From positions 57,062-121,061 of the forward strand of contig NZ_JASCXX010000016.1 of assembly GCF_030012215.1 (NCBI RefSeq): a stretch of DNA of 64,000 bases. The letters run 5' to 3'. Below the pieces are notes generated by a model. That model was given only the letters and a program-made list of their open reading frames with translations. It was not told the DNA's origin and searched no databases. The stretch is from Anaerobaca lacustris. GTDB lineage: Bacteria; Planctomycetota; Phycisphaerae; Sedimentisphaerales; Anaerobacaceae. Below are positions 9,803 to 57,254 of this stretch, piece by piece (the first letter of the stretch is position 1; each line of letters opens with the position of its first letter). Both the position numbers and the translations under genes were made by a program.

Positions 9803-11364
9803 GGGCGGGTGGTGGTTTTGGGGGGGTGTTGGTTGTGGATGAAGAAGTAGCGCAGGGCGTCGATGGGGTGGTCGTGGACGCCGTCTTTGAGGGGCAGCTC
9901 GCCCGAGGCGGCAGGGCCGTCGTCGGGGTAGTGGTAGCATTGCATCGCCTCGATCAGGCGGCAGCAGCGCGGCGAGATCAGCAGCGAACTGCGGCCGTCG
10001 CCGGAACGGATGGCCCGTCGGATCAGCTCGATCCCTTCGACGATGCCGCTGCGCCGGTAGCGCGTGGCGATGCCGAAGCTGCGCAGCTCGCGGACGACGC
10101 TGGTTCCGGTGATGTCGCCGGCGGCCGCGCCCGCGGGGTCGCAGAACGTCGCGGCGACCCGCTCCTCCGGGCAGGGGGTCCGCGTCTTGATTTCCTTGGT
10201 GTGGATGTCGATCGTCGCCCGACTGCGGAGGTATTCGTCGATTACGCGGATGGCTCCGTTGCCATCGACCTGAATCCACAGGCACACGAACGGATTGACG
10301 AAGCCGAAGTCCAGCGTGCGATACAGGGGCAGGTTGGGATCGTAATCGACCGGTTTGACGTGAACGGTTGGGTCGAACTCGCCGAAGACGACGTTCTCGA
10401 GCGAGGGTCGAATGCAGAGCATCTCGGCCTCCCAGCCGGAGCGGCTGCTGCGGCGCATCTGGGCGATGGCGTCGTCGATTCGCAGGTAGCCGGCGGCGTT
10501 CTTCGCCTTGCCCCGGCAGTCGGACCACAACGGGCACCGCGAGCAACTGCGCGCCATGCACTTCTCGATCGTCTCCCACAGGCACCATTTGAACACGGGC
10601 ACGCCCATCTTCGTTGCCGCCGCGACCTCGCGCTGCATGATCCCGTAGGGCCGGTGCATCGTGCTGATCAGCTCGATGCCCGCGGTGAGATTGTCCTTGC
10701 TGAGCGTGGTGAACTTGGCGGCGGCAAAGACGTCCTCATCGAACAACTCGACCTCATCGCATCGCAGCTTCTGCACGTGCTGGCCCCGCACGCTGGTGGC
10801 CGATTGCGTCAGCACCTCGACCGCAGCGCCGTTGGCGAAGCGGCAGCCGCCTTTGCGGATCGGGCCATCGAGCGCGCTCGCGAAGCCTCGTTGCAGGAAC
10901 AGCGTGAGATACTCATACATCCGGCTCGACTGCTCGCCCGATCCGCCCAGGATACGCACCTGGCAGCCGCTCTTGAACAGGCAGTCGAGCAGCGTCGAGA
11001 CCGCCGCCAGTTCCGTCTTGCCCCCGCCGCGATTCGCCCAGACGATGGCGTCTGCGGATTGATGATTGATTGTTGATGATGGATTATTGGAGACGGAAGA
11101 TAGATGGTTTGAATCACCCTTCATCAGTAATCGATCATCAACTGAGAAGCTGTGCCAGAGGTAGTCCATCGGGCTGCTGTGGTCGGGGCAGATCCGCATG
11201 TCCGGCACGTCGATCCCGAGGAAGACCTTCACATAGTTTTTCAGATCCTCTCGCGTTCGCGGCCTCGTCCGCCGCAGCATGTCGTAGATGTTTCTGGCTT
11301 TGGCCAGTGCGGGCGAATCATGATTCGCCCCTACATCGGCGCAGGGATGCATCGTCTCGGTCAT
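9796..11364 (-). CDS. Phage-type terminase large subunit
   Basis: A 522-residue DNA-packaging ATPase-nuclease. Walker A is AIVWANRGGGKTELA (about residues 106-120), Walker B is KLRCDEVELFDE, and the RNase-H-like nuclease part shows TLDFGFVNPFVCLW and AATFCDPAG with a late HPIDALRY. GGAGGAATC precedes the ATG at 11364. A CxxCPLWSDC cluster in the middle suggests a small zinc site. Two pieces do not belong to the family: a palindromic element gives the N-terminal peptide VGANHDSPAL, and a repetitive AT-rich insert encodes Ser/Asn-rich residues 80-103 before Walker A. No portal, capsid or tail gene is adjacent, so this is an isolated phage remnant or a domesticated gene. Confidence 0.85.
   Translation of the reverse strand: MTETMHPCADVGANHDSPALAKARNIYDMLRRTRPRTREDLKNYVKVFLGIDVPDMRICPDHSSPMDYLWHSFSVDDRLLMKGDSNHLSSVSNNPSSTINHQSADAIVWANRGGGKTELAAVSTLLDCLFKSGCQVRILGGSGEQSSRMYEYLTLFLQRGFASALDGPIRKGGCRFANGAAVEVLTQSATSVRGQHVQKLRCDEVELFDEDVFAAAKFTTLSKDNLTAGIELISTMHRPYGIMQREVAAATKMGVPVFKWCLWETIEKCMARSCSRCPLWSDCRGKAKNAAGYLRIDDAIAQMRRSSRSGWEAEMLCIRPSLENVVFGEFDPTVHVKPVDYDPNLPLYRTLDFGFVNPFVCLWIQVDGNGAIRVIDEYLRSRATIDIHTKEIKTRTPCPEERVAATFCDPAGAAAGDITGTSVVRELRSFGIATRYRRSGIVEGIELIRRAIRSGDGRSSLLISPRCCRLIEAMQCYHYPDDGPAASGELPLKDGVHDHPIDALRYFFIHNQHPPKTTTRPY
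11056..11146. repeat. Low-complexity AT-rich insert inside terminase gene
   Basis: A run built from TTGATGATT/GATGATGG-like units, clearly more AT-rich than the surrounding gene. It is in frame and encodes a Ser/Asn/His-rich linker (SNHLSSVSNNPSSTINHQS) just before the Walker A motif. It looks like an expanded simple repeat or a decayed small element. Confidence 0.55.
11307..11334. repeat. Family A palindromic element (in frame in terminase)
   Basis: A 28-bp palindrome with core GGCGAATCATGATTCGCC and outer GTGC/CTAC arms. On the minus strand it encodes the VGANHDSP peptide near the terminase N-terminus. Confidence 0.8.
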
Positions 11365-11425
11365 CGGAGATTCCTCCAAAGAAAGGTTCGTGGTTTGTTA
11401 TTCGAAGATGGGGCAGATTCCGTTC

Positions 11426-11475
11426 GTAGTGTGCCCGTAAGAGCATAAATCATAACGCCTTACGGCGTCACTATG
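11426..11475. repeat. Family B double-hairpin element
   Basis: Begins GTAGTGTGCCCGTAAGAGCA and ends AACGCCTTACGGCGTCACTA. It can form two short hairpins, each with a GTAA tetraloop on one strand, and its ends are AGTG and CACT. A closely related copy sits inside the esterase gene at 58380. Here it lies between the terminase gene and the beta-helix gene. Confidence 0.7.
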
Positions 11476-11489
11476 AGCGCGCTGTGCTG

Positions 11490-12986
11490 CTAATCCAACG
11501 TGGTGACAATATCGGAGATGGACATGCTCGCTTCGGCGGTGCCGCCATAAGCGCCCATATTGATGATCCCACCGTTGGGGAAGGGCTCGTGGCCGATGGG
11601 ACTGTTCGGGTCGCCTGCGTCGATACAGGGGCTGGTGACGTCGTCTGCCACCCAACTCTCGCTGTTCGGGTTCCACCGCCCTGCCTGGCTCTTGAGGTGG
11701 TAGTCGCCCTCGACGAAGATGTCGTCACTGAAATCGTCCGGAGTGCCGTTCGGGTCCCAGTAGCCTGGCATAGCGAAGGCGGGGTCCTGGTCTATGTTCC
11801 CAAGATCGCGCGTCGCAACGGCATTGGGGTCGAGGCAGCAGTAGAAGCAGGTTCCCAACCAGTCGCTGTCGTTCGGGTCCTCTCGTGAAAGCTTCTCGTT
11901 CTTCCACACGATGCAGTTGGCCAGTTCGGACAAGCCATCGGTCTCGATACGAATCTCGGGGTTGCCGGCAGCGCGGTTGTCAGCGATCGTGCAGTTTTTC
12001 AGGCTGATGGCGCCGGCCGCGACGGCGCCGCCTTGCATCCGTGCGAGGTTTCCTGCAAACAGCGAGTTCGTGAACGTGAGCGTGGTATTATATGAATCGC
12101 CAAAGACCGCTCCGCCCAAAGACATCGCAGTATTTCCGATGAACACGGAGTCCTCGAATGCGACTGTCGCCAGAAGCCAGCCCGCGACGGCTCCGCCCGA
12201 CGATGGCGAGTAGTTCTGGATGAACTCGCAGGCGTACAGACTGACATGGCCCTGATGGCAGCACAGGGCGCCACCGCCGCCTCCGTAGTTGTTGCTGAAT
12301 GTACTTTCGACGATCTCTACATGGCAGACGGGACCCACGTAGACCGCGCCGCCCCAACCTGTCGTCGTTGCGTTGTCCTCGAAAATGCAGCTGGCGACCT
12401 TGACTTCATGGCCCAGGATGAGCATTCCCGCGCCGCCGTTGCTTTCTCCTCGGGGAATGATGCTGTAGAGTCCTCCTCTGATGGTGAAGCCATCAATCAC
12501 GACATGGTCACCGACGACTTTGACGACGTTGGCAACGTTATCCAGTCGATCAATCGGCATGGCCTTCCGAAACACCGCCGCAGGGACGGGAAGATCGTTT
12601 CCCTTCAAGTCGCCGGTGAGGACCGTCGGATAGTCGTTTACATCCCTGGCATTCGGATCGGGCGTGCCGATGCCGGCGTACCCGCCCCGTAATGTCAAGT
12701 CGTCGCATAGGTGAAAGGCTACGATTCCGTTGCCCGATCCCTTAGGAGTGATCACATATTGGTCGGGCTTATAGAGCCCTTGCGCAACGCGGACTTCGAC
12801 GGGCTCGCCCGCGGATTCGGCGTCAGTCAGGGCGTCCTGGAGGAAAGGGTAGGCGGTGGCCCAGGACCGGCCATCTCCGGGAGGCGGGGCGTCGTCGTCG
12901 ACGTAGAGGATGCGCTGGGCGGTGGCGCTGGTGGTGAGGGCGGCGAGCAGGAACGTCGCGACGATTTGCCAGCCTATCCTCCGCGT
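11490..12986 (-). CDS. Secreted beta-helix protein with non-canonical start
   Basis: About 498 residues. A signal peptide (IGWQIVATFLLAALTTSATA) is followed by RILYVDDDAPPPGDGRSWAT, the standard opening of planctomycete right-handed beta-helix proteins, then repeats such as GGAGMLILGHEVKVASCIFE, GGAVYVGPVCHVEIVEST and GGALCCHQGHVSLYACEF. The C-terminus PNGGIINMGAYGGTAEAS is highly characteristic of this group. These proteins are surface or secreted and may bind or cut polysaccharides. No ATG, GTG or TTG opens this frame before the signal peptide. The best position is an ACG codon at 12986-12984, with AGGGAG seven bases upstream, as if an ATG had mutated. The first conventional start would lose the signal peptide. 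Confidence 0.75.
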   Translation of the reverse strand, partial: TRRIGWQIVATFLLAALTTSATAQRILYVDDDAPPPGDGRSWATAYPFLQDALTDAESAGEPVEVRVAQGLYKPDQYVITPKGSGNGIVAFHLCDDLTLRGGYAGIGTPDPNARDVNDYPTVLTGDLKGNDLPVPAAVFRKAMPIDRLDNVANVVKVVGDHVVIDGFTIRGGLYSIIPRGESNGGAGMLILGHEVKVASCIFEDNATTTGWGGAVYVGPVCHVEIVESTFSNNYGGGGGALCCHQGHVSLYACEFIQNYSPSSGGAVAGWLLATVAFEDSVFIGNTAMSLGGAVFGDSYNTTLTFTNSLFAGNLARMQGGAVAAGAISLKNCTIADNRAAGNPEIRIETDGLSELANCIVWKNEKLSREDPNDSDWLGTCFYCCLDPNAVATRDLGNIDQDPAFAMPGYWDPNGTPDDFSDDIFVEGDYHLKSQAGRWNPNSESWVADDVTSPCIDAGDPNSPIGHEPFPNGGIINMGAYGGTAEASMSISDIVTTLD

Positions 12987-13125
12987 GGCTGTGCTCCCTC
13001 GATAGCATAATCAACCGTTCCAGTCTGAGAACGATCATAGCCGATTCGAGGGGATTTGTCAACGGGCTTGTTGAAGCTCGTGCGTCCGCGCACGACTTTG
13101 GGGTAGGCGAACGGGGACGTCCGCG

Positions 13126-16100
13126 CTACAGGGGGCGAATGAGGAGGTGCTGGTCCTGGCCGGCGGCGAGGGTCAGGGGCAGGCCCTCGTGGAGGGCTTG
13201 GCCGGTGGTGGTGATGGTCTGCCCGGGGCCGGCGACAGTGTACTTCTTCGCGGGCTCGACGGTGAACCATTCGGGCAGGGTGTTCATACGGGGCCAGTCT
13301 TGCGCGAAGCCCATGTATTCGCGATGGCGGGGGATGTCGAAGCAGAGTCTGCCGGACCAGGGTTCGTCGGACTTGACCGCAATGACCAGGTTGCCGCCGA
13401 CGCGCACGGCGCCGAGGTGGAGGCCTTTCTGCCAGGGGCGGGCGATGACGCCCTGGGTGTGCATCATCGCGTGCATCAGGACGGTGCGGACGCCGTTGGA
13501 TTCGAGCTTCATCGTACCCCAAAGTTCGGCCGTGTCCAGTGGCTCGGTCGAGCGCGTGACACTGCGGGCCATCTCGCGATCGACCCAGGCGAAACCCTCC
13601 TCGACCGGGACGCGGTTGAGCAGGTAGATCGCTCCTTCGATCGAATCGGCGAAGCCGTCGATCGAGTAGTTGCCTTCCCAGTTGTAGTTGTCGTATGCGG
13701 GCTTGGCGAGGTTCTTCAAGGTGCGTTCGACCTGCGTGCGATAAACTGGCACACCGACGGCCATGTCGTAGCAGAGATAGCCGACGTAGTTGTAGCCCCA
13801 GCCGTCGCTGAGCCGGCCGTTGCCGCCGTCGCGGGCGGTCAGGTGGTTGTACATCATGCCATCTTCGTTGCAGCCCTTGGCGAGGATCGTGTCGAAGACG
13901 TGCTTGAGTTTCTCTCGATAGACCTTGGCTTTGGGGCGGTTCTGTTGCACCTCGACGGCATAGAGCAGGCCGAGGCCGCCGATGATTTCGCAGCCGTGAT
14001 CGCGGAGCCGTTCGGGCACGAAGTCCGGCTGATCGAAGTAGTAGTCCGCCAGTCGCTCGGCCCAGGTGAGAAACTCCTCGCGGCCGGTCATCGTGTACAG
14101 CCGGGCCAGCGCCTGAAGCTGCTCGCCGTTGACCTCGACGTTCTTCGACGGGATCTTGCCGTAGGGCGTGTCGTACCGGGCGTGCTTCCAGATGTCCTCC
14201 TGGATGCCCAGCATGCGATCGAACCACTCGTCCTTGCCGGTGACCTCCACGATGGCGATCAGGCCGTCTTTGACGTATTCGGATGCCTCGAAAATCATCT
14301 GATCGTAGTCGAGATCGATCTTCCGATTCTTCTGCCAATCGTACGGGACCGGGATGCAGTCGAGATGGTTGCAGAGCTTCTGCTCGGCGTGCAGGACGCT
14401 CCGCACGGGGCCGTCGAGCGCGTCTTTGTCTACGACGAACGCCGCCCAGCACAGGAACGGATAACAATCAGCGGCGGTGTCGCGATAGTTCCAGTGGCCA
14501 TCGGCGATATACAGGCCGGTCCCGGCGTCGATCATCGGCAGGGCCTTCTCATGCAGCCAGCGCTGCACCTTGCTCAAGGCATAGCCGGCGATCTCGCCCG
14601 ACTTCGCGGCCCGGTCGAGGATCGCCTTGTCGAGCTGCGACAGCTCGTCCGGCGGTGTGGCGACCGGGCGGCGGGTGCGATGGTGCAGCAGCTCCTTGAA
14701 CTCGTCGAGATGCTTCTCATAGACGCCGCGCGGCATCGTGTCGTGTTTGATGCACAGGTATGCGGCCCGTCCGACGACCTCGCCCATCAGCCCGCCGGTG
14801 GCCATCACGCGGACCGAGCCGAGCGCCTCCTGCGTGACGCTCACGTTGCGTCCGGCCATGAACAGGTTCGGCACGTTCCGCGAGTACAGGATGCGGTAGG
14901 GGACGAGATAGGGCGGCTCGAAGCGGTTGTACTGGGCCACCGAGATAAACGGATTGTCCGGCGCGGCCTCGACGTAGCGCGGGTCGGGCACGTGCAGGTC
15001 GATGGGCCAGGTGGTCGCCACGCAGGCGTCGGGGAAGGGGCGCTTGGTGAGAACGTCCTCGCCGGTGAGGATCACGTCGCCCAGCAGGCGGCGCGACTCG
15101 CGCTTGCCCGCGATGAACGCCGCCCAGCTAAGCTTGTGGTTGGGATAGCGGCCCTCGGCGTTCTTCATCGTGTCCCAGACGCTGAACATGGCGCGCAGAT
15201 TGTGGTCGCGGATCGCCTCGGCGTCGGCCATCGGGTCCAGATCGAAGCCCGTCTCCCAGAACCATACGCCCAGGCGGTTCAGCTCGCGCGGGAACGGCTT
15301 GCCGTCGAGGTTCAGGCCCCACTCGATGCGGCCGAACGCGACCGGTCCGTCCGTCTCTTCGACGAGCCACATGTTGCTGGCCCCCATCCGCTCCTTGGGC
15401 TTCATCACCCAGTCGGCCCCGGCCAGGACGCCCACCGTCGCATCGCCGGTGCAATCGACGAACAAGCGCCCCGTGTATCGGGTCCGCCGGCCCGTGACGA
15501 TATTCTGTGAGACGACCGCCGCGATCCGTCCGCCCTCGGTCCAGACCTCGTTGACGTGCTCTCCCATGAAAAGCGACAGGTTCGGCTCGCCTTCCGCGAC
15601 CGCCCGCTTCTTGTCGTCGCCAAACTGCTCGGCCGGTCCCGGCGACGACTGCGGGCGGGTGTAGAATTCCGCGACGATCTCCCCGATCGCCGGGTAGGGC
15701 TCCAACTGGAAACCGCCGTTGATCCAGACACGGACCTCGGAGCTGCTGTTGCCGCCAAGGACGGGGCGGTCCTGGATCAGGGCCACGCTAAGGCCCAGCC
15801 GGGCCGCACTGACCGCCGCGCAGGTGCCAGCGACGCCTCCGCCGACGACCACGAGATCGAACGAGCCGCCGTCGGCGGGCTCAGTGTCGAGCCCGAGGAG
15901 GCTCCGGCGAAAGCTCGCCAAAGCCTTGCCTTCGTTGGGCGGGCGAAACAAAGGATCGGAGGCAAACAGGATCGCATCGCAGCGCCCGTTGAAGCCGGTC
16001 AGGTCTCGCAGCGTCAGTCTGGCCTTCCGCGATTCGATCTGCACGGTGCCGCCGTCCTGCCAATGCCAGTTGTCCCCTTCGGTGCCAAACGTGGTCGCCA

Positions 16101-16437: not shown

Positions 16438-16510
16438 CGTGGCCTCCGGAGTCTGTTTGGATGCGGTGCTGCCGTGCACGATCGTACTGCTCAGCCGGTG
16501 CCGAGCGGGA

Positions 16511-41908: not shown

Positions 41909-41936
41909 GACAAGGGCGACGCATGCGTCGCCCCTA
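41909..41936. repeat. Family A palindromic element
   Basis: Core GGCGACGCATGCGTCGCC ending CCTAC. The left flank CCTGGA is shared with the copy at 45695 and partly with 57227. Confidence 0.8.
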
Positions 41937-42031
41937 CGGCTAGCGATCCGGTACATTCCGTTATGATTTCCTCTTGTCAGCCCGAGCCGTTCGACTGCGC
42001 TTGACGTGGCAAGCCGTCGGCCTCCTGCCGG

Positions 42032-42059
42032 GCAGGGGCGAGGCATGCCTCGCCCTTGT
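42032..42059. repeat. Family A palindromic element
   Basis: Core GGCGAGGCATGCCTCGCC with weaker outer arms (GCAGG/CTTGT). Confidence 0.8.
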
Positions 42060-45649: not shown

Positions 45650-45694
45650 CGCACGACGTACGTAAGTCGACCGGCCCTGTTTTGCCTGGAAAGG

Positions 45695-45722
45695 AAAGGG
45701 GCGACGCATGCGTCGCCCCTAC
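45695..45722. repeat. Family A palindromic element
   Basis: Core GGCGACGCATGCGTCGCC with ACGGC after it. It lies just beyond the SYLF gene; the same core and flanks occur at 41909 and 57227. Confidence 0.8.
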
Positions 45723-46404: not shown

Positions 46405-46804
46405 ACCTGCCCCCCATTGAATTGCTGTTTGTGTTCTTCCGAGCGTTTCACCGGCTCGCGGTGGATCGGGCGCGGACCGACGACTCACGATGACCTGGGT
46501 GCGATTTGTGTGTTGTGTACAATCCCCATTTTCCCTATTATAACAGGGCGGCCAGGGTCTGTCAATGACCTATTCAAGTTTTCCGAGAGAGTCTTTGGAT
46601 AGAATACGCGCAGTCGTGAATCATCGCTCTGAAGGTCCTTATAACCATCGCAACGGCTGCCCGCACCTGCGTGTATTATCGCCCCCGTCGCGTCGCGCTC
46701 GCCTCATCGTGCCGCACAATGCGTGAGCCCCCGTTCTTATCGCCCCCAGCGAACCCGTCCGGATGTCACTTGGGTAGGGGCGAGGCATGCCTCGCCCTCG
46801 CCAT
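46405..46804. other. Intergenic region with one family A palindrome
   Basis: About 400 bases. It should carry the promoter of the PEP-CTERM gene. An AT-rich stretch near 46520-46550 is the only compositional outlier. No gene is supported. Confidence 0.5.
46774..46801. repeat. Family A palindromic element
   Basis: Core GGCGAGGCATGCCTCGCC. Its end lies four bases before the stop codon of the NifU-like gene. Confidence 0.8.
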
Positions 46805-49217: not shown

Positions 49218-49245
49218 GTAGGGGCGAATGATGATTCGCCCGTAC
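49218..49245. repeat. Family A palindromic element
   Basis: Core GGCGAATGATGATTCGCC, outer GTAGG/CGTAC. It is upstream of the DUF4405 gene, in the same frame as that gene but before its start. Confidence 0.75.
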
Positions 49246-49292
49246 GAGGTGCCCATACGAAGGCGGACCAATCGAAAGTGAGGGCCGAAACG

Positions 49293-50201: not shown

Positions 50202-50278
50202 GGCGAGCGTCCCATTCGACGTTGCTCAGGGCAGGCTCCCGCTCGCCTGAAAACATCGTGCGAGGGCGAGACCTCCGG

Positions 50279-50902
50279 CTACAGCGCCCGGCGTCGTTTC
50301 AGCCAGCCGGCCGTCCCCATGCCGATCATGCCCAGCATCGCCGCACCGGGGACCGGGACCACGTACGTGCGGAACTGCATGTCACCCCCCCCGCCAAAAC
50401 TGGCTGCAATCTGCCAGCCCTCGTCGACATTCCAATGCCATAGGGCACCGGGCCCATAGGAATCCGGGTTCCATCTCACACCCACCGTTGCATATCCCGC
50501 CGAGTCCTTCGGATAGAGCACGATGGCGTACATCTGGTCGGCGGTCAGACCAATACCCTGCGGGAGGAAGTCAACACTGAGCCAACCATCTCTGGGGATA
50601 AGATCGGGCGAGGTGACCGACCCCAGCACAGTCGGGCTTGGCTGGCCCGCCGTCGTGTTCCAGATCTCCACGACAGGCGGAGACTCAGGCAACCACCACC
50701 CCCCGGAAGTGTTACCGATTTCGATCCTGGCCAGTGGCCCCGACATGCCCGCCGTAAATGTCTGGGCGAACCAGAGCGACCCCCCGGCACCGGCGGTGCC
50801 GTTCTGCTCCTCCTGGAACTGGTCGAGGATGAGGCCGGCCTGGGCGGCTGTGGCGACAAGCAGACAGACCGCCACGAGGGCAGCAATGCGATTTCTATTC
50901 AT
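50279..50902 (-). CDS. PEP-CTERM-type secreted protein
   Basis: A 207-residue protein with TTGGAGGTC before the ATG at 50902. A signal peptide (IAALVAVCLLVATAAQA) precedes a beta-rich domain (LWFAQTFTAGMSGPLARIEI, LTADQMYAIVLYPKDSAGYA). The tail VVPVPGAAMLGMIGMGTAGW followed by LKRRRAL is a complete sorting signal. The domain resembles those that coat cell surfaces. The protein at 51733 is a paralogue with a broken version of the same tail, so the pair shows intact and decayed states. Confidence 0.87.
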   Translation of the reverse strand: MNRNRIAALVAVCLLVATAAQAGLILDQFQEEQNGTAGAGGSLWFAQTFTAGMSGPLARIEIGNTSGGWWLPESPPVVEIWNTTAGQPSPTVLGSVTSPDLIPRDGWLSVDFLPQGIGLTADQMYAIVLYPKDSAGYATVGVRWNPDSYGPGALWHWNVDEGWQIAASFGGGGDMQFRTYVVPVPGAAMLGMIGMGTAGWLKRRRAL

Positions 50903-51320
50903 CGTTCTGACCTCCAAAATCGAGATGGACACCAAAAACTGACCCCCGTCGTGTGCGCCCCTACCGCCGCTTCGGGCAGACGGCCTGCGTCCTTCACCCG
51001 GTCCTCGGTTCCGTCGTCCGATCGAATGCCCTGCTGGTATGCGACGTCGTGGCCGGCCTTGGCCGCGACGGATGTTGCCTTGTGCTGAACGATGACGAGA
51101 CCGGGCCTTGGCGGCCGACGGTCTCATTGCACAGTGTACCGTCGCGCGGGTCCGCTGTCAAGAATCCTGCGACGCACATCAAGCTAAAATAGACACAAAA
51201 GGTCCCTGGCGTGGCCGTAGTAGAGGCAAAATACGTAGAACTACGTACATGTGTGCCACGAGCATTTCGGGTAGAGTAACGTGCGTGGCGTTGGCAGACA
51301 AAGTCAAAGGAGCGATTGGT
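50903..51320. other. Intergenic region without a recognised gene
   Basis: About 418 bases between divergent genes. It should hold both promoters. No palindromic element and no supported gene were found. Confidence 0.5.
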
Positions 51321-51623
51321 ATGAGCCCGGATCAACTTGGCGGCTGGATCGGTGGCATGCTCGGCGGTGTGCTCGGACTGGCGGGCGGGATCATCGGGAC
51401 GTACTGCGGCATTCGCAACACGAACGGCCCGCGCGAGCGGCGGTTCATGGTCCGTGCGGCGGTCGTTACATGGGTGGCGGTCCTGCTCTTTCTGGCGTTG
51501 CTCTTTTTGCTGCCGAGCCCGTGGCGCTTCCTGCTCTGGATTCCCTACGGCATCCTGCTGCCCGTCGGGATCATCCTGGGCAACCGCCGCCAGCAACAAA
51601 TCCGCCGCGAAGAAGATTTGTAG
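51321..51623 (+). CDS. Small membrane protein
   Basis: A 100-residue protein with AAAGGAG before its ATG. One Gly-rich hydrophobic helix (GGMLGGVLGLAGGIIGTYCG) and a second hydrophobic region (AVVTWVAVLLFLALLFLLPS, WIPYGILLPVGIIL) are separated by a basic loop (NTNGPRERRFMVR). The C-terminus is basic (GNRRQQQIRREEDL). No family is recognised. The stop codon TAG is the first part of a hairpin repeat at 51620-51676. Confidence 0.65.
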   Translation: MSPDQLGGWIGGMLGGVLGLAGGIIGTYCGIRNTNGPRERRFMVRAAVVTWVAVLLFLALLFLLPSPWRFLLWIPYGILLPVGIILGNRRQQQIRREEDL

Positions 51624-51676
51624 GATGGGCTTTAGCCCATGCCGTATCAGCCGCATGGGCTGAAGCCCATCCTACG
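51620..51676. repeat. Hairpin repeat, family D
   Basis: GTAGGATGGGCTTTAGCCCA on the left and GGGCTGAAGCCCATCCTACG on the right, with a nested CATGCC/GCATGG pair. It starts at the stop codon of the membrane protein gene, so it could act as a terminator for both convergent genes. Confidence 0.75.
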
Positions 51677-51732
51677 CGACTCCGGCCACAGCGCCCGTCG
51701 CCGTTTCAGCCAGCCGGCGGTCGCCATGCCGA

Positions 51733-52455
51733 TCAGGCCCAGCACCGCCGCACCCGGAAGCGGAACCACCGAAACCGTCCCTCATGAACCGCGATCGCAT
51801 AGGAGCCCCGTGACAAGACCTCGTAACTCTGCAAACCATCGTAATTGCCATCGAAGCGCTGCCACCATGCTTTCTCGTCATCGAGACTGTACTTGGTGCC
51901 CGACCAGTAGCGCCCATCCTCTTTTAGGTTAATGAAAGGTCCGGTGTTGTTCATGCCATGGCCCGGCTGGGGGTTTGTTCCATCGGTGGCATAATAGCCG
52001 AGGTTGTCAAGGGACACGTAGTACAGGTGCCCCATCTCCGAGTTGACCATATTCCAGCCGCCGTCATAGTCGTGATACCCCGTTTCATCAGGCCCCGCAT
52101 AGCCCCAAACGCCGTCCAGGTTGGCCTTGCTTTCGTCCACAATGGGCTGCCGCCAGCCGGTGGTCCAGTCGATGGTGGTCGTATAGAGCGGGTCCAGATT
52201 GACTGTGAGGCTTGTGCCCAATCCGCTCGCCCAGTTCTCGTGGTCATGCCATGTCCGCGTGGTGCCTCCTATCCGCGCCGGCCTCGTATAGTCCAGCCAG
52301 ACGATGCTTTGGGCGGAGTCGTAGATCAGGTTGTACTCGCCCTCTCCACTTCCATCATCGTAGGTGGCGGTGCCGATGACTATCAGGTCGGCGTGTGTAG
52401 TTGTAGCGGCGAGCAGGGCGGCCAGGGCCCATGCGAATGCGGTTCGTCTCTTCAT
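51733..52455 (-). CDS. PEP-CTERM-type secreted protein with frameshifted sorting tail
   Basis: A 240-residue frame with a signal peptide (AFAWALAALLAATTTHA) and a beta-rich domain (LIVIGTATYDDGSGEGEYNL, YWSGTKYSLDDEKAWWQRFD). In this frame the end after GSYAIAVHEG becomes an unrelated Arg-rich peptide (RFRWFRFRVRRCWA). Shifting by one base after a GAGGG tract gives TVSVVPLPGAAVLGLIGMAT then GWLKRRRALWPES, which is the expected PEP-CTERM tail and would run to 51647. The tail is thus present but out of frame: a mutation, a variable G-tract or a sequencing error. Without it the protein would not be sorted. Confidence 0.75.
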   Translation of the reverse strand: MKRRTAFAWALAALLAATTTHADLIVIGTATYDDGSGEGEYNLIYDSAQSIVWLDYTRPARIGGTTRTWHDHENWASGLGTSLTVNLDPLYTTTIDWTTGWRQPIVDESKANLDGVWGYAGPDETGYHDYDGGWNMVNSEMGHLYYVSLDNLGYYATDGTNPQPGHGMNNTGPFINLKEDGRYWSGTKYSLDDEKAWWQRFDGNYDGLQSYEVLSRGSYAIAVHEGRFRWFRFRVRRCWA

Positions 52456-52723
52456 CGTCGTACCTCCCGCTGCTGTGTGCGGGGTCCCGACGGCTGTCGG
52501 GCTCGCCCCGTACCGTTCGTGGCCCGATGTGGGCTTCGTTGTCGCACAGGCTCGACGGCCTATAACCTCTCTATGTTCCCTATACTGCCACGCGGGCTCT
52601 TGTCAAGCCCTCTCTTTGGTAAACAGGGGTGCCTTGGGGGAGATGGGCAATCTGTATCCCATCCGCAGGAGCGAATGAAAACTCACTCTCATGAAGTTGT
52701 CAAAGAGCGGCGCGTAGGGCGAG

Positions 52724-53173
52724 CTACGAAGCCACCGGCCTGTCAGCGGCCTGAGTTGCATGCTGCTGCCTGACCCAGTCGTAGGCCTCCGGGTCCTTGT
52801 CGGGGGCGCGCGGATCGAACTTGCTCTGGCTGGCCATCAGGGCGATCCGCTGCTCCCACGGGAAGCTCGTGCGGACCTGCCGCCAGAACTCGGCGGCGGT
52901 CACCATGTCGGCAGGCGGCTCCGTTTTGGGCGGCCGGGTCATCGCGTCGGCGGCGATCCGGCGCACCTGCCCCCGGACCAGCCGGATGCTCGGGCGGATC
53001 GGATCGTCGTCGATCTTGTGCTGCCGGACGGCCTGTGTCAGCGTCCCGGCGTCATAGCGGCCCAGTGCCGCATACCAGTCGTTCAGCACAACGCCGTTGA
53101 CCTGCCACGACGGCCATCGCGGCTGCACCTGCTCGGTGAACCAATCGGCAAACTCATGCCTGGTCATCATTGA
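52724..53173 (-). CDS. Small hypothetical protein of the phage-like module
   Basis: A 149-residue protein starting MMTRHEFADWFTEQVQPRWP, with GGAGTTT before the ATG at 53173. It overlaps the previous gene by 20 bases. It contains LNDWYAALGRYDAGTLTQAV, IRPSIRLVRGQVRRIAAD and an acidic C-terminal part (SKFDPRAPDKDPEAYDWVRQ). Size and position after a replication-like protein recall phage replication accessory proteins such as helicase loaders, but there is no motif proof. It is the last gene of the minus-strand module. Confidence 0.55.
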   Translation of the reverse strand, partial: SMMTRHEFADWFTEQVQPRWPSWQVNGVVLNDWYAALGRYDAGTLTQAVRQHKIDDDPIRPSIRLVRGQVRRIAADAMTRPPKTEPPADMVTAAEFWRQVRTSFPWEQRIALMASQSKFDPRAPDKDPEAYDWVRQQHATQAADRPVAS

Positions 53174-53732
53174 GAAACTCCTCTTGCGCCTTGGCCAGCG
53201 CGCAGGCGGCCCGCTGGCGGTCCATTTCCGCGAACGTCGGCAATCCGCCTGTGGCGGACCGAACGCCCGGCCCCGATCCCGAAAAACAAACAGGGGGACC
53301 CTTCTTCTCCTTCTTCTCATTCTTCTCATTCTTGATAGTGGCCGCTTGATGGCCTTCTGTTGGTCGTTTGTTGGCCGGCCGTTGGTCGCTATGCGGGCTG
53401 GCCTGCTCTTCGTTGATGTCGTAAATCGTAATATCGAGAAGGGTTGCGATTGTCCCTCTGTGGGTCGCTTGGAAGCGCGCCAATCCGTATCTTTCCAGGT
53501 GCGCCATGGCGGTTCGGTACTTGCGTCGCGTCAGCCCGCAGGAGGCGTAGTCGCCGATCAGCGCCTGGCCGATCTGGAGGCCGTGGACGTTGAAGTCGTT
53601 CGTCCGCTTGGCGCGGAGGGCGATCTGGGTCAGCAGTTGGAACGCAGGGCCGTCGCGGAGCAGCTCTCGCGTCGCATCGCTGCGCATCAGCTTGATGAAC
53701 CCGCCGGGAATCGCGATCGTGTCGTACGTCAT
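53154..53732 (-). CDS. Replication-initiator-like winged-helix protein
   Basis: A 192-residue protein. It opens MTYDTIAIPGGFIKLMRSDA and has LLRDGPAFQLLTQIALRAKR, IGDYASCGLTRRKYRTAMAH and LERYGLARFQATHRGTIATL, which together look like a winged-helix DNA-binding domain of the sort found in phage and plasmid replication proteins. The middle is linked to a very basic, low-complexity tail (KNEKNEKKEKK). It overlaps the ParB gene by four bases (ATGA) and the next gene by 20 bases, so the module is tightly coupled. Confidence 0.6.
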   Translation of the reverse strand: MTYDTIAIPGGFIKLMRSDATRELLRDGPAFQLLTQIALRAKRTNDFNVHGLQIGQALIGDYASCGLTRRKYRTAMAHLERYGLARFQATHRGTIATLLDITIYDINEEQASPHSDQRPANKRPTEGHQAATIKNEKNEKKEKKGPPVCFSGSGPGVRSATGGLPTFAEMDRQRAACALAKAQEEFLNDDQA

Positions 53733-54397
53733 TGCTCTGCCCTTTCCTGCGTTGCGGGCGGTAGGGGCGAGGCATGCCTCGCCCTTGCCGACGAATCAGC
53801 CGCCAGGCGGGTCAGCGCAGCGGCGCGTCGGGCGGCCTTGGTCGGCTGGTTCGATTGCTCGGCCAGGGCGGTCAGGGCGCTTTCGATAGCCGCGTGCTGC
53901 TCGTCGCTGACGAAGAAGACCATCGGCGTGGCGAACGGGCTTCTCTTGCTCGTTTGCCCTGCGCCGGGCAGGGGCTTGGCGCCGGTGAGCCGTTCCAGTT
54001 GGCCGCGCGTCTGCGGGAGCAATTGCGCCAGCTCGCGGATGGATCGTCGCGCGCGGAGGCGGCGCAGGATCGCGAGCTTGTGGTCGAGGCAGTCGCGTCC
54101 GGTCAGCCGGTTCAGCGTCGCCAGGAGAATGTCCGCCTGCTCGTCGTCGACGTTCCAGACCACCGCCTGGGCCGTCTCGTAGCCGAGGCGGCGCAGGGCC
54201 TCGCAGCGGTGGTGGCCGTGGAGGATCTGGAAGCCGCCGCGCTTGTGCGGGTGTGGCCGGACCACCAGCGGCTCGTAATAGCCGGTGCGTTTGATGTGTC
54301 GCATCAGCTTGCCGAACGCCGCCCGGCTCATCCGATTGGCATGGTCCGGGTGCGGCCACAGCCGCGACAGCGCGATCGTGCGAATCTTCATTGTCAT
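53729..54397 (-). CDS. ParB-like nuclease-domain protein
   Basis: A 222-residue ParB/Sulfiredoxin-fold protein. The N-terminal domain has LSRLWPHPDHANRMSRAAFG, YYEPLVVRPHPHKRGGFQIL and HGHHRCEALRRLGYETAQA, the HGHHR box being the ParB signature. It continues ADILLATLNRLTGRDCLDHK and a helical second half (IRELAQLLPQTRGQLERLTG). A palindromic element near the end adds RARHASPLP. GGAGGC before the ATG at 54397 supports this start rather than one 51 bases upstream that lies in a hairpin repeat. ParB-like proteins of phage-like modules partition DNA or cut it. Confidence 0.82.
   Translation of the reverse strand: MTMKIRTIALSRLWPHPDHANRMSRAAFGKLMRHIKRTGYYEPLVVRPHPHKRGGFQILHGHHRCEALRRLGYETAQAVVWNVDDEQADILLATLNRLTGRDCLDHKLAILRRLRARRSIRELAQLLPQTRGQLERLTGAKPLPGAGQTSKRSPFATPMVFFVSDEQHAAIESALTALAEQSNQPTKAARRAAALTRLAADSSARARHASPLPPATQERAEQ
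53761..53788. repeat. Family A palindromic element (in frame in ParB-like gene)
   Basis: Core GGCGAGGCATGCCTCGCC with GTAGG in front. In the minus-strand reading it gives RARHASPLP close to the ParB C-terminus, without a frame change. Confidence 0.8.
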
Positions 54398-54448
54398 GGG
54401 AATTGGTGCCTCCACTGGTTGATCGTTTAGGTCGTTTGGGTCCTTCAT

Positions 54449-54505
54449 GTCCCTTAGGTCCTACAGATACCGAAAGACCTAAAGGACACAAGGGACCTAA
54501 GGGAC
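54449..54505. repeat. Hairpin repeat F, copy 1
   Basis: Perfect 13-bp arms GTCCCTTAGGTCC (54449-54461) and GGACCTAAGGGAC (54493-54505). A second copy with a shorter loop is at 55471. It lies upstream of the ParB-like gene start and may be a terminator, a binding site or an element. Confidence 0.7.
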
Positions 54506-54531
54506 TTATGCCCTGACGGGCACTACAAACT

Positions 54532-55419
54532 TCATGGCCAAGTCACCTCCAGGGTCGGATGGCGCCAGAGATAGTACATCGGGCGCTGCGTCAGGCGCGT
54601 CAGCAGGTAGCGCGTGCGTTCGAGTCCGCTTGGCATCGTCCGTCGCGTGCCGTGACTCTTGAGAACGCCCTGAATCGCCCGTTCGAGGAATGCGGCCTCG
54701 ACGCTCGGCAGCGTGTCGATTCGCTGCTGAAGGGCCTGCGGATCAATCGGTAGGGGCGAATCGCCATTCGCCCGCGCGTCGATGCCGACGGCGCTAAGCG
54801 CTTCGAGCAGCGTCGCGTGCTCGACACTGGCGCGCGGCGTGAAGGGCTGCATGCCCGCACGCTCGAAGAAGGGATGGACCGCGCCGCAGACGGCCATCGC
54901 CTCGACGAGCGGGACCTCCACGCGGCCGAGCGTCTCGCGCACGAGGCGCGTCGCCAGTCCGATGCCGCGAAAGGGCGGCTCGATCGCCAGGCGCGCGATG
55001 CAGCGGACGTTGCGGTTGAGCAGGGCGAGTTGGCTCTGGCGGTCCAGACCGGCGAACAGGCCGGCGGTGGCGATGCGGCGCATTTCGACGCGGGGGTTGG
55101 GCATGCAATAGACAATCGCTCCGGCCAGCCGGTTCAGCGTGGCCAGCAGAATGTCCGCCTGCTCGTCGTCGACGTTCCAGACCACCGCCTGGGCCGTCTC
55201 GTGGCCGAGGCGGCGCAGGGCCTCGCAGCGGTGGTGGCCGTGGAGGATCTGGAAGCTCCCTCGCTTGTGCGGGTGCGGACGGACGACCAGCGGCTCGTAA
55301 TAGCCGGTGCGTTTGATGTGGCGCATCAGCTTGCCGAACGCCGCCCGGCTCATCCGATTGGCATGGTCCGGGTGCGGCCACAGCCGCGACAACTCGATCT
55401 TGCGAATCTTCATTGTCAT
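54532..55419 (-). CDS. ParB-GNAT chimeric protein
   Basis: A 295-residue fusion. Residues 1 to about 108 are almost identical to the N-terminal ParB part of the downstream gene (MTMKIRKIELSRLWPHPDHA, then HGHHRCEALRRLGHE). After ATLNRLAG the sequence switches to AIVYCMPNPRVEMRRIATAG, identical to the C-terminal half of the acetyltransferase encoded upstream, ending MYYLWRHPTLEVTWP. It therefore arose by tandem duplication across the two genes. The GNAT half has VRCIARLAIEPPFRGIGLAT with the acetyl-CoA loop. Whether the hybrid is active is unknown. A palindromic element is also in frame. Confidence 0.8.
   Translation of the reverse strand: MTMKIRKIELSRLWPHPDHANRMSRAAFGKLMRHIKRTGYYEPLVVRPHPHKRGSFQILHGHHRCEALRRLGHETAQAVVWNVDDEQADILLATLNRLAGAIVYCMPNPRVEMRRIATAGLFAGLDRQSQLALLNRNVRCIARLAIEPPFRGIGLATRLVRETLGRVEVPLVEAMAVCGAVHPFFERAGMQPFTPRASVEHATLLEALSAVGIDARANGDSPLPIDPQALQQRIDTLPSVEAAFLERAIQGVLKSHGTRRTMPSGLERTRYLLTRLTQRPMYYLWRHPTLEVTWP
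54750..54777. repeat. Family A palindromic element (in frame in chimera)
   Basis: Core GGCGAATCGCCATTCGCC, slightly decayed at its centre. In frame it gives ARANGDSPLP in the chimera. Confidence 0.75.
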
Positions 55420-55470
55420 GGGAATTGGTGCCTCCACTGGTTGATCGTTTAGGTCGTTTGGGTCCTTCAT

Positions 55471-55509
55471 GTCCCTTAGGTCCTACAGATACCGAAAGAC
55501 CTAAGGGAC
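55471..55509. repeat. Hairpin repeat F, copy 2
   Basis: Arms GTCCCTTAGGTC (55471-55482) and GACCTAAGGGAC (55498-55509). It is 18 bases shorter than copy 1 in the loop, as if slippage between internal direct repeats had deleted them. Confidence 0.7.
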
Positions 55510-55535
55510 TTGTGCCCTGACGGGCACTACAAACT

Positions 55536-56306
55536 TCATGGCCAGGTTACCTCCAGGGTCGGGTGGCGCCAGAGATAGTACATCGGCCGCTGTGTCAGAC
55601 GCGTCAGCAGGTAGCGCGTGCGTTCGAGTCCGCTTGGCATCGTCCGTCGCGTGCCGTGACTCTTGAGAACGCCCTGAATCGCCCGTTCGAGAAACGCGGC
55701 TTTGGCGTTGTCCAGTGTTTCGATCTGCTGCTGAAGGGCCTGCGGATCAATCGGTAGGGGCGAATCATCATTCGCCCGCGCGTCGATGCCGACGGCGCTG
55801 AGCGCTTCGCGCAGCATCGCGTGCTCGACGCTGGCGCGCGGGGCGAAGGGCTGCATGCCCGCACGCTCGAAGAAGGGATGGACCGCGCCGCAGACGGCCA
55901 TCGCCTCGACGAGCGGGACCTCCACGCGGCCGAGCGTCTCGCGCACGAGGCGCGTCGCCAGTCCGATGCCGCGAAAGGGCGGCTCGATCGCCAGGCGCGC
56001 GATGCAGCGGACGTTGCGGTTGAGCAGGGCGAGTTGGCTCTGGCGGTCTAGACCGGCGAACAGGCCGGCGGTGGCGATGCGGCGCATTTCGACGCGGGGG
56101 TTGGGCATGCAATAGACAATCGCTCCCGCCGGCCGCGTGCCGAACGCCCCGAGCGGCTGCTTCGGACGCAGCAGGAACACCGCCTTGACCGCACGCGGCT
56201 TCTCGTTGCGATAGTGATACGCCGCCAGCGGCGCATAATCCGCCGCCTCGCCCGCGACCACCTCCAACGCCGCATGCAGAGAACAGCGCTGCGATTGTGG
56301 ATTCAT
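55536..56306 (-). CDS. GNAT acetyltransferase, partner of the ABC ATPase
   Basis: A 256-residue GNAT-like protein. AGAGGAGG lies before the ATG at 56306. It has ADYAPLAAYHYRNEKPRAVK, AIVYCMPNPRVEMRRIATAG, and VRCIARLAIEPPFRGIGLAT with RLVRETLGRV (acetyl-CoA binding). In other organisms such a domain is fused to an ABC ATPase (COG2401, ABC-type ATPase fused to a predicted acetyltransferase); here the two are separate neighbouring genes. An upstream frame overlaps the ATPase stop by four bases (ATG at 56498) and would include a family C repeat, so the original start may have been displaced. Confidence 0.75.
   Translation of the reverse strand: MNPQSQRCSLHAALEVVAGEAADYAPLAAYHYRNEKPRAVKAVFLLRPKQPLGAFGTRPAGAIVYCMPNPRVEMRRIATAGLFAGLDRQSQLALLNRNVRCIARLAIEPPFRGIGLATRLVRETLGRVEVPLVEAMAVCGAVHPFFERAGMQPFAPRASVEHAMLREALSAVGIDARANDDSPLPIDPQALQQQIETLDNAKAAFLERAIQGVLKSHGTRRTMPSGLERTRYLLTRLTQRPMYYLWRHPTLEVTWP
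55754..55781. repeat. Family A palindromic element (in frame in GNAT gene)
   Basis: Core GGCGAATCATCATTCGCC. In frame it gives ARANDDSPLP. The copy at 54750 in the chimera was presumably duplicated from this one (or the reverse). Confidence 0.8.
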
Positions 56307-56327
56307 CCGCGTGGCAGCCTCCTCTTC

Positions 56328-56465
56328 TTTGTCATCCTGAGCGGAGCGCAGCGCAGTCGAAGAGCCTGCCCTGAGTCTGCCGAAGGGATCTGGCCATAGA
56401 CCAGATGCACGCCTCGTCGCAGCCAGATTCCTCCGCTCCGCTTCGCTTCGGTCGGAATGACAAAG
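56328..56465. repeat. Family C element at the 5' end of the GNAT gene
   Basis: About 138 bp from TTTGTCATCCTGAGCGGAG to CGGTCGGAATGACAAAG. It lies in the open frame between the ATPase stop and the GNAT start, so it was accepted without a stop codon. Confidence 0.75.
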
Positions 56466-56494
56466 TCGTGGTGTGGTTGTGGTTTGCCTCAAGG

Positions 56495-57145
56495 TCATGA
56501 TCGCCTCGCTGTCCTGTAGACCACCTGCGCGGGGCTGGTGAAATCCTTGGTGACGATCGCGTCGGGGGCGAGGTCCATGAGGATGTCGTCCCGGCTGGTG
56601 GCGACGATCAGCGTCGCGCCCGCCCGTCGGGCGAAGCGGGCGGCGTTGAAGGCCGTCGTCACGGCGGTGATGCGGTCGAGGTTCGAGCAGAACTCGTCGG
56701 CGAAGACGAACGGCCTGCCCGACGCCAGCGCCCTGGCCAGGCGGAATCGCAGCTTCTGCCCGTCGCTCAGCACGCTGGGCCGGGTGAGCATCGCGTAGAC
56801 CGCCCCCATACCGGCGGCGGTGAGCAGTTGCAGGCTGGCGACGAGGTTGTCGTCGAAGCAGTCGATCACGGTCCGGTCGTCGGGCAGCTCGATCTCGTCG
56901 AGGTTGATCCGCTCGGCCTCAGGCGTGCGCTGCTCGATCTCGCGCAGCAGCACGCTCTTGCCCGAGCCCGACGGGCCGGTGATGGCGACGATGTCACCGG
57001 GCTCGATGCGGACCTCGCACTGGTGCACCGGCCCGGCCTCGGCGATCCGGTCGAGCGTCAGGCCGAACATGCGGGCCAGGCGCGCGACCCTCTCGCTGAC
57101 GGGCCCGGTCCAGCCGAACTGCTTCGTCACATGGTAGGTGGTCAT
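56495..57145 (-). CDS. ABC-type ATPase (COG2401-like)
   Basis: A 216-residue soluble ATPase. GGGAGG precedes the ATG at 57145. Walker A is VAITGPSGSGKSVLL (Gly57-Ser64), the signature is VLSDGQKLRFRLARAL and Walker B is FVFADEFCSNLD (Asp150, Glu151). The H-loop region reads IVATSRDDILMDL, lacking the usual His. It has no membrane part, so it is not a transporter. The neighbouring GNAT protein completes what is one fused protein elsewhere. Function of this family is unknown. Confidence 0.82.
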   Translation of the reverse strand: MTTYHVTKQFGWTGPVSERVARLARMFGLTLDRIAEAGPVHQCEVRIEPGDIVAITGPSGSGKSVLLREIEQRTPEAERINLDEIELPDDRTVIDCFDDNLVASLQLLTAAGMGAVYAMLTRPSVLSDGQKLRFRLARALASGRPFVFADEFCSNLDRITAVTTAFNAARFARRAGATLIVATSRDDILMDLAPDAIVTKDFTSPAQVVYRTARRS

Positions 57146-57226
57146 CGGCAAACCTCCCTTTCTATTGCGGACTTCGGATTGCGGATTCGCTGCCATCCGC
57201 GAATTCACTGTTGCTTGTCGTCCTGG

Positions 57227-57254
57227 CGAAGGGCGACGCATGCGTCGCCCCTAC
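57227..57254. repeat. Family A palindromic element
   Basis: Core GGCGACGCATGCGTCGCC, then CCTACGGCG. It lies between the ATPase and double-HTH genes. Confidence 0.8.

What the first reader, a model, noticed from the sequence alone, without database searches (positions are those of the whole stretch)
11307..57254. In-frame palindromic elements (family A): planctomycete counterpart of Rickettsia palindromic elements
A 28-bp palindrome built on GTAGGGGCGA and its mirror occurs at 11307, 41909, 42032, 45695, 46774, 49218, 53761, 54750, 55754 and 57227. Three core versions (CGCATGCG, GGCATGCC, ATCATGAT) share the outer arms. At least four copies lie inside genes and keep the frame, giving repeated peptides such as VGANHDSP, RARHASPLP and ARANDDSPLP. 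In-frame insertion of short palindromes is known in Rickettsia; a family in several unrelated genes of a planctomycete would be new to me. The spread suggests a mobilising mechanism that tolerates coding regions.
Basis: partly seen in the sequence, partly recalled or inferred. Interest (0 to 1): 0.85.

Follow-up and report, generated by a model that had tools for sequence, protein, structure and literature searches.

The report
In-frame REP palindromes with their transposase
Ten short DNA palindromes in this planctomycete window belong to a genome-wide family of about a hundred that lies mostly between genes, lies inside some predicted genes without breaking the reading frame, and is likely spread by a transposase gene of the same genome that has the palindrome at its start, inside it and just after it.

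Summary
All ten palindromes are in the window; the genome has about 98 exact sites, and the reversed control pattern has 0. They are GTAG-footed REP elements (12-bp stem, 4-nt loop, co-varying stem bases). A REP-associated tyrosine transposase (RAYT) with the same REP at its start codon, in frame after its HUH motif and just after its stop is in the same genome. Of 100 copies examined, 64 are intergenic, 20 overlap a gene end (15 supply the TAG stop) and 16 lie in frame inside predicted genes, 14 of these in one phase (VGANHDSPL/RARHASPL).

The kind is known: intragenic GTAG REPs (Di Nocera 2013) and REPs in frame inside subclass-2.4 RAYT genes (Quentin 2018). It is not a relative of the Rickettsia elements.

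New here: at 8 strictly matched orthologous sites the hairpin tip differs, a 37-bp form in a congener and a 28-bp form here, while arms and mostly the flanks stay. This points to tips being overwritten from other REPs; the two cases polarised by an outgroup are not tip-only, so loss and re-arrival is not excluded.

Side finding: a whole RAYT sits in frame inside valyl-tRNA synthetase of this genome and of many related planctomycetes.

The parts
11307..11334 (.). REP family A, tip ATCATGAT, in frame near the N-terminus (residue 11) of a Terminase_6C-domain gene; peptide VGANHDSPAL
41910..41937 (.). REP family A, tip CGCATGCG, intergenic
42032..42059 (.). REP family A, tip GGCATGCC, intergenic
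45695..45722 (.). REP family A, tip CGCATGCG, intergenic; the orthologous site in G005 holds a long-tip form
46774..46801 (.). REP family A, tip GGCATGCC, intergenic; a copy (GGCACGCC) is also at this place in G005
49218..49245 (.). REP family A, AT-type tip, intergenic; G005 and G002 hold two copies here
53729..54448 (-). ParB_N-domain gene carrying the copy at 53761 near its C-terminus
   Evidence: Pfam PF02195 32.7 bits
53761..53788 (.). REP family A, tip GGCATGCC, in frame (ARARHASPLP); same site in G002 (GGCATGCC) and G005 (ATGATTAT, with the adjoining flank on one side changed too)
54532..55470 (-). ParB_N-domain gene carrying the copy at 54750
   Evidence: Pfam PF02195 31 bits
54750..54777 (.). 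REP family A, tip ATCGCCAT, in frame (ARANGDSPLP); present in G005 and G002, absent with 18 bp less in G003, G004, G029
55536..56498 (-). tandem paralogue of the gene at 54532-55470, carrying the copy at 55754
   Evidence: no Pfam match; paralogy from the alignment
55754..55781 (.). REP family A, tip ATCATCAT, in frame (ARANDDSPLP); same ancestral event as 54750
57227..57254 (.). REP family A, tip CGCATGCG, intergenic; orthologous site in G005 holds the long-tip form with the same feet (8 of 8 bases) and flanks

Best explanation
The palindromes are a GTAG-footed REP family whose likely mobilising enzyme is a RAYT (an HUH tyrosine transposase) encoded in the same genome at G000:C7:13111-13719, with one REP at its start codon, one in frame inside it and one after its stop. 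The RAYT is predicted to recognise the single-stranded hairpin (GTAG foot, 12-bp stem, 4-nt loop) and to copy or paste it to new places, as inferred for other RAYTs. New copies mostly survive between genes. Copies that land in a gene would survive only if the frame is kept, and are found mainly in the phase that reads V/R-G/A-A-x-x-x-S-P-L, likely because that peptide is tolerated in linkers and loops. A copy whose foot is in frame ends the gene with its own TAG. Once placed, a site can be kept while its hairpin tip changes; I infer a gene-conversion-like or template-switch copying between dispersed REPs. Shown here: anatomy, covariation, RAYT architecture, gene context, empty sites, tip differences at orthologous sites. 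Inferred: enzymatic mobilisation, the way tips change, and neutrality of the peptides.
For: Copy number and control. Stem covariation over 100 copies: tip pair 11/18 is AT 38, GC 30, CG 28, TA 2, mismatched 2; pair 12/17 is GC 63, TA 33, AT 2, mismatched 2; two 28-mers fold to a 12-bp stem, z -6.4 and -8.4. RAYT: G002 gene flanked and pierced by the REP, own-genome orthologue 83% identical with the same three REPs; NCBIfam REP_Tyr_transpos E 2e-14 and 5e-18; profile match to TnpAREP 4er8 over 35 positions, E 7.6e-7. In 40 of 80 RAYT loci of named genomes the HUH-W stretch shares a match of score 16 or more, by eye mostly a GTAG palindrome, with the gene's own flanks, against 5 of 400 pairings with other flanks. 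The family is in 5 of 6 genomes of the genus and 5 of 93 others searched. Gene context: 64 intergenic, 20 gene ends, 16 intragenic; 15 copies give 16 stop codons; phase 0 in 14 of 16. Empty sites. Tip differences.
Against: The RAYT scores below the curated NCBIfam cut-off (53.5 and 65.3 against 80 bits), and Pfam Y1_Tnp does not reach 0.001 for the own-genome copy. A RAYT with family-A flanks was found only in G000 and G002; the search with it gave no close match in G001, G003 or G005, which hold REPs too. Net length change at arrivals is not constant (0, 8, 18, 21-22 bp), unlike simple transposon insertion. That GTAG pre-exists as target is not general: at C37:12478 3 of 3 empty relatives have GTAG at the stop, at C9:151596 1 of 4, while at C37:11076 and C9:148543 relatives, by my reading of the frames, run on to another stop. 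Four of the 16 intragenic copies lie within the first 30 residues of their gene model and one of these is in a 95-aa frame without Pfam match, so some may be outside real proteins; 5 of 16 lack coding signal on one or both sides. The tip set is ascertained: relatives' long-tip sites were fetched on purpose.
Confidence: 0.87

Rival explanations
1. The palindromes are true counterparts, or relatives, of the Rickettsia palindromic elements: selfish inserts specialised for coding sequence.
For: 16 of 100 copies are in frame inside predicted genes of unrelated function.
Against: 64 of 100 copies are intergenic and genes are avoided (36 of 100 touch a gene against 83% coding). They carry the GTAG foot and a RAYT, whereas RPE-4/6 are CGTC elements, a class described as without a dedicated transposase (PMC3733652).
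Confidence: 0.06
2. The palindromes are retained for a function in RNA, as 3'-end stabilisers or terminators, and their spread is secondary.
For: 28 of 56 flanking 3' gene ends lie within 60 bp of an intergenic copy, against 12 of 70 5' ends; 15 copies form a stop codon. A hairpin at a 3' end can protect mRNA (general knowledge).
Against: Orthologous genes in G003, G004 or G029 lack the copies examined; counts differ from 0 to 79 + 78 strand matches between congeners; convergent spacers hold no more than about their share (6 of 63 against 8.7% of intergenic DNA).
Confidence: 0.12
3. Tips differ between species because old copies were lost and new REPs arrived at the same places, not because tips were overwritten.
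For: REPs favour places such as gene ends, so repeated arrival is possible. At some switched sites more than the tip differs: at C20:3006 only 3-4 of 8 foot bases agree, at 53761 the adjoining flank on one side agrees at 3 of 14 bases, at C27:34113 one flank at 2-5 of 14.
Against: At 57227 all 8 foot bases and 13 of 14 bases on either side agree although the tip differs; at C9:154454 7 of 8 and 10 and 14 of 14; C11:38138, C11:38253 and C20:20415 keep both adjoining flanks (11-14 of 14) with 5-6 of 8 foot bases. Feet agree at 6.0 of 8 bases in switched pairs, 6.7 in unswitched and 4.8 in random pairs of copies.
Confidence: 0.35

Closest known systems
GTAG REPs of Di Nocera, De Gregorio and Rocco 2013 (PMC3733652)
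   Same: 20-40 bp palindrome with a GTAG end, tens to hundreds of copies, mostly intergenic, near 3' ends, TAG stop codons supplied by the foot, some copies inside genes, RAYT genes flanked by the repeat; reported also in Planctomycetes.
   Different: The passages and section that I read do not describe this sequence family, a phase preference, or tip differences at orthologous sites.
TnpAREP subclass 2.4 = Bertels group 4 (Quentin et al. 2018, PMC6006769)
   Same: NH[IFV]H and WQ motifs, REPs flanking the gene, double-foot REPs (GTAG ... CTAC) and REPs inserted in frame between HUH and Y.
   Different: Here the start codon also lies in the REP tip; the own-genome Y motif reads YTADNP rather than YIxNNP and the G002 HUH reads NHMH.
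REPINs / RAYT of Pseudomonas (Bertels and Rainey 2011, PMC3116915; passages seen)
   Same: Non-autonomous REP hairpins thought to be moved by a RAYT in trans.
   Different: There the replicating unit is a REP doublet; here the copies that I describe are taken one palindrome at a time, and I did not test for doublets.
Rickettsia palindromic elements
   Same: In-frame copies in unrelated genes.
   Different: Foot class and transposase differ as described in PMC3733652; here mostly extragenic. Sequences were not compared directly.

Membership tests
GTAG REP | short palindrome in high copy number | tested here: met
   98 exact sites, 28 bp, 12-bp stem
GTAG REP | GTAG tetranucleotide at one end | tested here: met
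   9 sites have it at both ends
GTAG REP | mainly extragenic, often by 3' ends | tested here: met
   64 of 100 intergenic; 28 of 56 neighbouring 3' ends within 60 bp
GTAG REP | a RAYT gene flanked by the same REP | tested here: met
   G000:C7 and G002:C77
RAYT subclass 2.4 / group 4 | HUH motif NH[IFV]H, then WQ | tested here: met
   MPNHVH and LWQRNY in G000; MPNHMH in G002 differs at the middle residue
RAYT subclass 2.4 / group 4 | Y motif YIxNNP | tested here: inconclusive
   YTADNP in G000, YIEANP in G002: Y and final NP kept
RAYT subclass 2.4 / group 4 | REP in frame between HUH and Y | tested here: met
   own-flank match in 40 of 80 relatives; 6 of the 80 loci have a stop in the matched frame
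RAYT subclass 2.4 / group 4 | placement in the published tree | not tested
   no tree with the reference set was built
REP-associated tyrosine transposase (NCBIfam NF047646) | score over the curated cut-off of 80 bits | tested here: not met
   53.5 and 65.3 bits, E 2e-14 and 5e-18; the protein is filed by architecture and motifs, not by this model
Active RAYT | binding and cleavage of single-stranded REP | not testable with these tools
   needs purified protein
Rickettsia palindromic elements | CGTC foot (RPE-4/6) and no dedicated transposase, as described in PMC3733652 | tested here: not met
   GTAG foot and RAYT found

The most novel reading that the evidence does not exclude
REP palindromes stay at fixed chromosomal sites across a genus while their hairpin tips are overwritten from other REPs, several sites in one lineage. 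This would be direct evidence for the gene conversion of REPs that a 1988 review title asks about, and it would explain how dispersed palindromes stay perfect: an extruded hairpin is opened at its tip and re-copied from another copy through the shared arms.
Probability: 0.45. Interest if true: 0.72.

Novelty: new member of a known kind. Interest (0 to 1): 0.52.

Why it matters
It gives a system, with congeners at about 73-94% identity around the sites, in which the life of a REP can be read: transposase, empty sites, arrival in genes, phase filter, new stop codons and later tip changes. Whether REPs evolve by transposition alone or also by gene conversion has been asked since 1988; the orthologous sites here make it directly testable. 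The whole RAYT inside valyl-tRNA synthetase, noticed on the way, suggests that the tolerance of coding sequence goes far beyond 28-bp palindromes in these planctomycetes.

Tried and rejected
Rejected: the 230-aa RAYT at G000:C17 (L010) as the cognate enzyme, because no family-A REP lies in its 2.2-kb locus and the nearest in the 11.7-kb stretch is about 3.6 kb away. Rejected: the 195-aa Y1 proteins of G001 and G005, and the 195-aa match in G003, because no family-A REP is in their 3.4-kb loci. Rejected: the G002:C22 RAYT, flanked by another repeat by eye. No Rfam family over its gathering score and no tRNA in the window. That every REP lands 3' of a pre-existing GTAG was looked at on four sites and is not general. 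Four copies with same-strand coding signal in different frames on the two sides were not taken as broken genes: all four lie at or near gene boundaries with a second gene beyond (my reading of coordinates). One 'same frame' case at a gene end (C37:11076) was not counted as intragenic. At C9:161103 G029 may hold a decayed copy, so I do not count it as a clean empty site. In one search I kept pairs with at least 3 of 4 flank comparisons, 53 of 93; site 45695 fails this filter but is aligned, and the RAYT-upstream site was compared by eye only (the script's own alignment of it was off target).
Full report
OBSERVATION. The window is G000:C16:57062-121061 of a 5.73-Mb draft genome of 117 contigs. 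All ten palindromes are present. The exact pattern GTAGGGGCGA-N(4-12)-TCGCCC gives 56 forward and 51 reverse matches in the genome (98 sites by subtraction of 9 double-footed ones), every listed one with an 8-nt core, and none for the reversed control pattern. Nine exact sites fall in the window. Of 99 genomes searched (own included) 10 have a match; 20 or more strand matches occur only in the own genome, four of five congeners and G029, a same-family genome of another genus. A G029 protein is named Sedimentisphaerales bacterium, an order of Planctomycetota, so 'planctomycete' is supported through the family.

ANATOMY. Among 100 copies (at least 16 of 20 arm bases, one arm at least 9) in 489,770 held bases, the stem runs two pairs into the core: pair 11/18 is AT 38, GC 30, CG 28, TA 2 and mismatched in 2; pair 12/17 is GC 63, TA 33, AT 2 and mismatched in 2; pair 13/16 is CG in 71 and pair 14/15 AT in 96. 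Two representative 28-mers fold as single-stranded DNA to 12 pairs and a 4-nt loop. A related 37-bp form has a longer tip, GGGCGATCCGCCTCTGGCGGACGTCGCCC, with a 2-nt bulge.

COGNATE RAYT. Pfam Y1_Tnp finds three RAYT-like matches over its cut-off in the genome, none with family A in its locus. A relaxed search in congeners led to G002:C77, whose 203-aa RAYT frame has a family-A REP at its start (the ATG is the ATG of the tip, the upstream in-frame stop is the TAG of the foot), one in frame after MPNHMHGIVVI (GRARHASPLPATP), and one just past the stop in the opposite orientation. Its orthologue, 83% identical and with the same three REPs, is in the window's own genome at C7:13111-13719. A second member of the clade at G000:C48 carries other palindromes in the same loop and ends on the TAG of one. 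The RAYT matches NCBIfam REP_Tyr_transpos (E 2e-14 and 5e-18, below the 80-bit cut-off) and the TnpAREP structure 4er8 (E 7.6e-7, over 35 profile positions). In 40 of these 80 the stretch between HUH and W shares a match of score 16 or more, by eye mostly a GTAG palindrome, with the gene's own flanks, against 5 of 400 pairings with flanks of other genes; 6 of the 80 have a stop in the matched frame. Genomes titled Gemmatimonadetes, Tectomicrobia, Methylomonas and Spirochaetia show family-A-like arms and tips there. This agrees with the description of subclass 2.4 in PMC6006769 (passages).

GENE CONTEXT. With a simple hexamer gene caller (426 genes, 83% coding) 64 copies are intergenic, 20 overlap a gene end and 16 lie inside a gene. 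Genes are avoided (36 of 100 touch a gene; binomial 2e-25; the held DNA was chosen around copies, so this is a rough test). Fifteen copies supply the stop codon of 16 genes as the TAG of their foot; C2:345542 does so for both convergent neighbours. The 16 intragenic copies keep the frame by construction of the call. Independent checks: ten of the 16 have same-frame coding signal on both sides, five lack signal on one or both sides, and one (53761) lies near a gene boundary; copies lie inside Pfam matches that run across them in an aminotransferase, a beta-lactamase-family protein, a GntP permease and a ThiF protein. Four of the 16 are within the first 30 residues of the gene model. Fourteen of 16 are in phase 0 (VGANHDSPL, RARHASPL), 2 in phase 1, 0 in phase 2; five could only be in phase 0 for want of stop-free alternatives, so 9 of 11 with a choice are in it. 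One pair is a paralogue duplicate and one is the RAYT itself.

EMPTY SITES. The ParB-gene site (54750/55754) is occupied in G005 and G002 and absent in G003, G004 and G029 with 18 bp less. At C9:151596 the copy stands in place of 28 bp of aligned gene sequence in G005, G002, G003 and G004, with no net change. At the stop codon C37:12478 the empty relatives G029, G004 and G003 are 21-22 bp shorter and already have GTAG there; at C37:11076 and C9:148543 relatives, by my reading of the frames, end elsewhere. Arrival thus often replaces local DNA, and the frame is kept by selection rather than by element length (inference).

TIP DIFFERENCES. Long tips (up to 3 mismatches) number 4 in G000, 9 in G001, 3 in G002, 10 in G005 and 0 in G003, G004, G029. 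The short tip CGCATGCG (up to 1 mismatch) numbers 34 in G000, 7 in each of G001, G002 and G003, 12 in G005 and 0 in G004 and G029. Flank matching gave 93 candidate pairs, 53 of them strict, 40 of these with a G000 partner. In 10 of the 40, at 8 sites, G000 has a short tip where the relative has the long one; one site is long in both; three further sites differ in tip class (53761; C37:8924; C11:145133; at the last two one adjoining flank aligns poorly). Window site 45695 is a ninth long-short case on weaker flank evidence and the RAYT's upstream REP a tenth by eye. Feet and flanks: at 57227 8 of 8 foot bases and 13 of 14 on either side are kept; at C9:154454 7 of 8, 10 and 14 of 14; C11:38138, C11:38253 and C20:20415 keep both flanks (11-14 of 14) and 5-6 of 8 foot bases; C10:70248 keeps its flanks with a 1-base shift (by eye); C27:34113 keeps one flank; C20:3006 keeps both flanks against G002 but 4 of 8 foot bases. 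Mean foot agreement is 6.0 of 8 in 15 switched pairs, 6.7 in 25 unswitched and 4.8 in random pairs of copies (the 15 include two AT-type pairs with small changes). Flank identity puts G002 outside G000, G001 and G005 at most loci compared, not at C9:148543 where G002 and G005 are closest. On that tree C20:3006 changed in G000 (long in G001 and G002) and 53761 changed in G005 (GGCATGCC in G000 and G002); but the first also differs in its feet and the second also in one flank, so neither is a clean tip-only event. Since long-tip sites of relatives were fetched on purpose, these counts are not frequencies. Independent mutation cannot easily give GCATGC at many sites, so I infer copying from other REPs, with loss and re-arrival as the live rival. 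A 1988 review title asks 'evolution by gene conversion?' (Higgins et al.; seen only in reference lists). A library search for REPs with gene conversion or concerted evolution listed 11 papers; in the three that I opened for this the single mention of gene conversion is that title; the others were not opened for this.

WHAT IS KNOWN. PMC3733652 (passages and section 15) reports GTAG REPs in Planctomycetes, REPs inside genes, and TAG stop codons from REP ends. PMC6006769 (passages) reports double-foot REPs and in-frame REPs in subclass-2.4 genes. PMC8266576 (passages) reports GTAG-dependent cleavage and a role of GTAG in cleavage-site choice. A term search of PMC2817692 found no mention of in-frame or intragenic copies. 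Hence the verdict: a new, well-resolved member of a known kind, with tip differences at orthologous sites that I did not find described.

SIDE FINDING. A RAYT lies in frame inside valyl-tRNA synthetase of this genome (L011, 1218-aa frame): two ValS models score over their cut-offs (794 over 704, 691 over 612 bits) and REP_Tyr_transpos scores 84.6 over 80 in the same 899-aa part. A protein search with the inserted part of the G029 protein found 942 proteins; of the 120 listed, 107 contain the ValRS motif TTRPET, and in 106 of these an HUH motif lies 100-159 residues before it, i.e. about the same place; a Y-x-x-NP motif of the form tested was found in 75 of 120; the other 13 include proteins named as DNA polymerase III alpha, alanyl-tRNA synthetase and NAD+ synthetase. 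None of the 15 Y1_Tnp matches listed for G001, G002, G003 and G005 lies in a frame over 330 aa, so within the genus it looks patchy. Two literature searches listed no paper that describes it by title or abstract.

Noticed in passing
L011 (G000:C13:126045-129227, minus strand); L166; proteins P0001-P0120: A RAYT lies in frame inside valyl-tRNA synthetase, flanked by another palindrome family, at about the same place in 106 of 107 listed ValRS homologues; other listed proteins have RAYTs in DNA polymerase III alpha, alanyl-tRNA synthetase, NAD+ synthetase and more.
   Followed up: partly
L011:1331-1377 and 2002-2060: A second REP-like family (GTGTCGCGGGCGTCCCGCCCGCG type) flanks the ValRS-embedded RAYT in inverted orientation and encodes peptides such as GQDALGTRGRDALDT.
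   Followed up: partly
L181 (G000:C48): A RAYT with several in-frame palindromes of another REP family (GTAGGGGCAGGCCCCCGTGCCTGCCC type) in its loop and its stop codon formed by the foot of one more.
   Followed up: partly
window:56329-56469 and window:51619-51676: Two further dispersed repeats of about 140 and 60 bp that match many places in the congeners.
   Followed up: no
L049:9552-9694 and L049:4019-4075: Two more dispersed repeats of about 143 and 55 bp that match many contigs of the relatives searched.
   Followed up: no
window:9796-11379, minus strand: A gene with a Terminase_6C domain, possibly a prophage remnant, carrying the copy at 11307 near its start.
   Followed up: no
L304 (G002:C77:11216-11323): About 300-400 bp upstream of the RAYT lies a second piece matching its first 36 residues at 75% identity, probably a truncated RAYT copy, overlapping a short-tip REP.
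   Followed up: no
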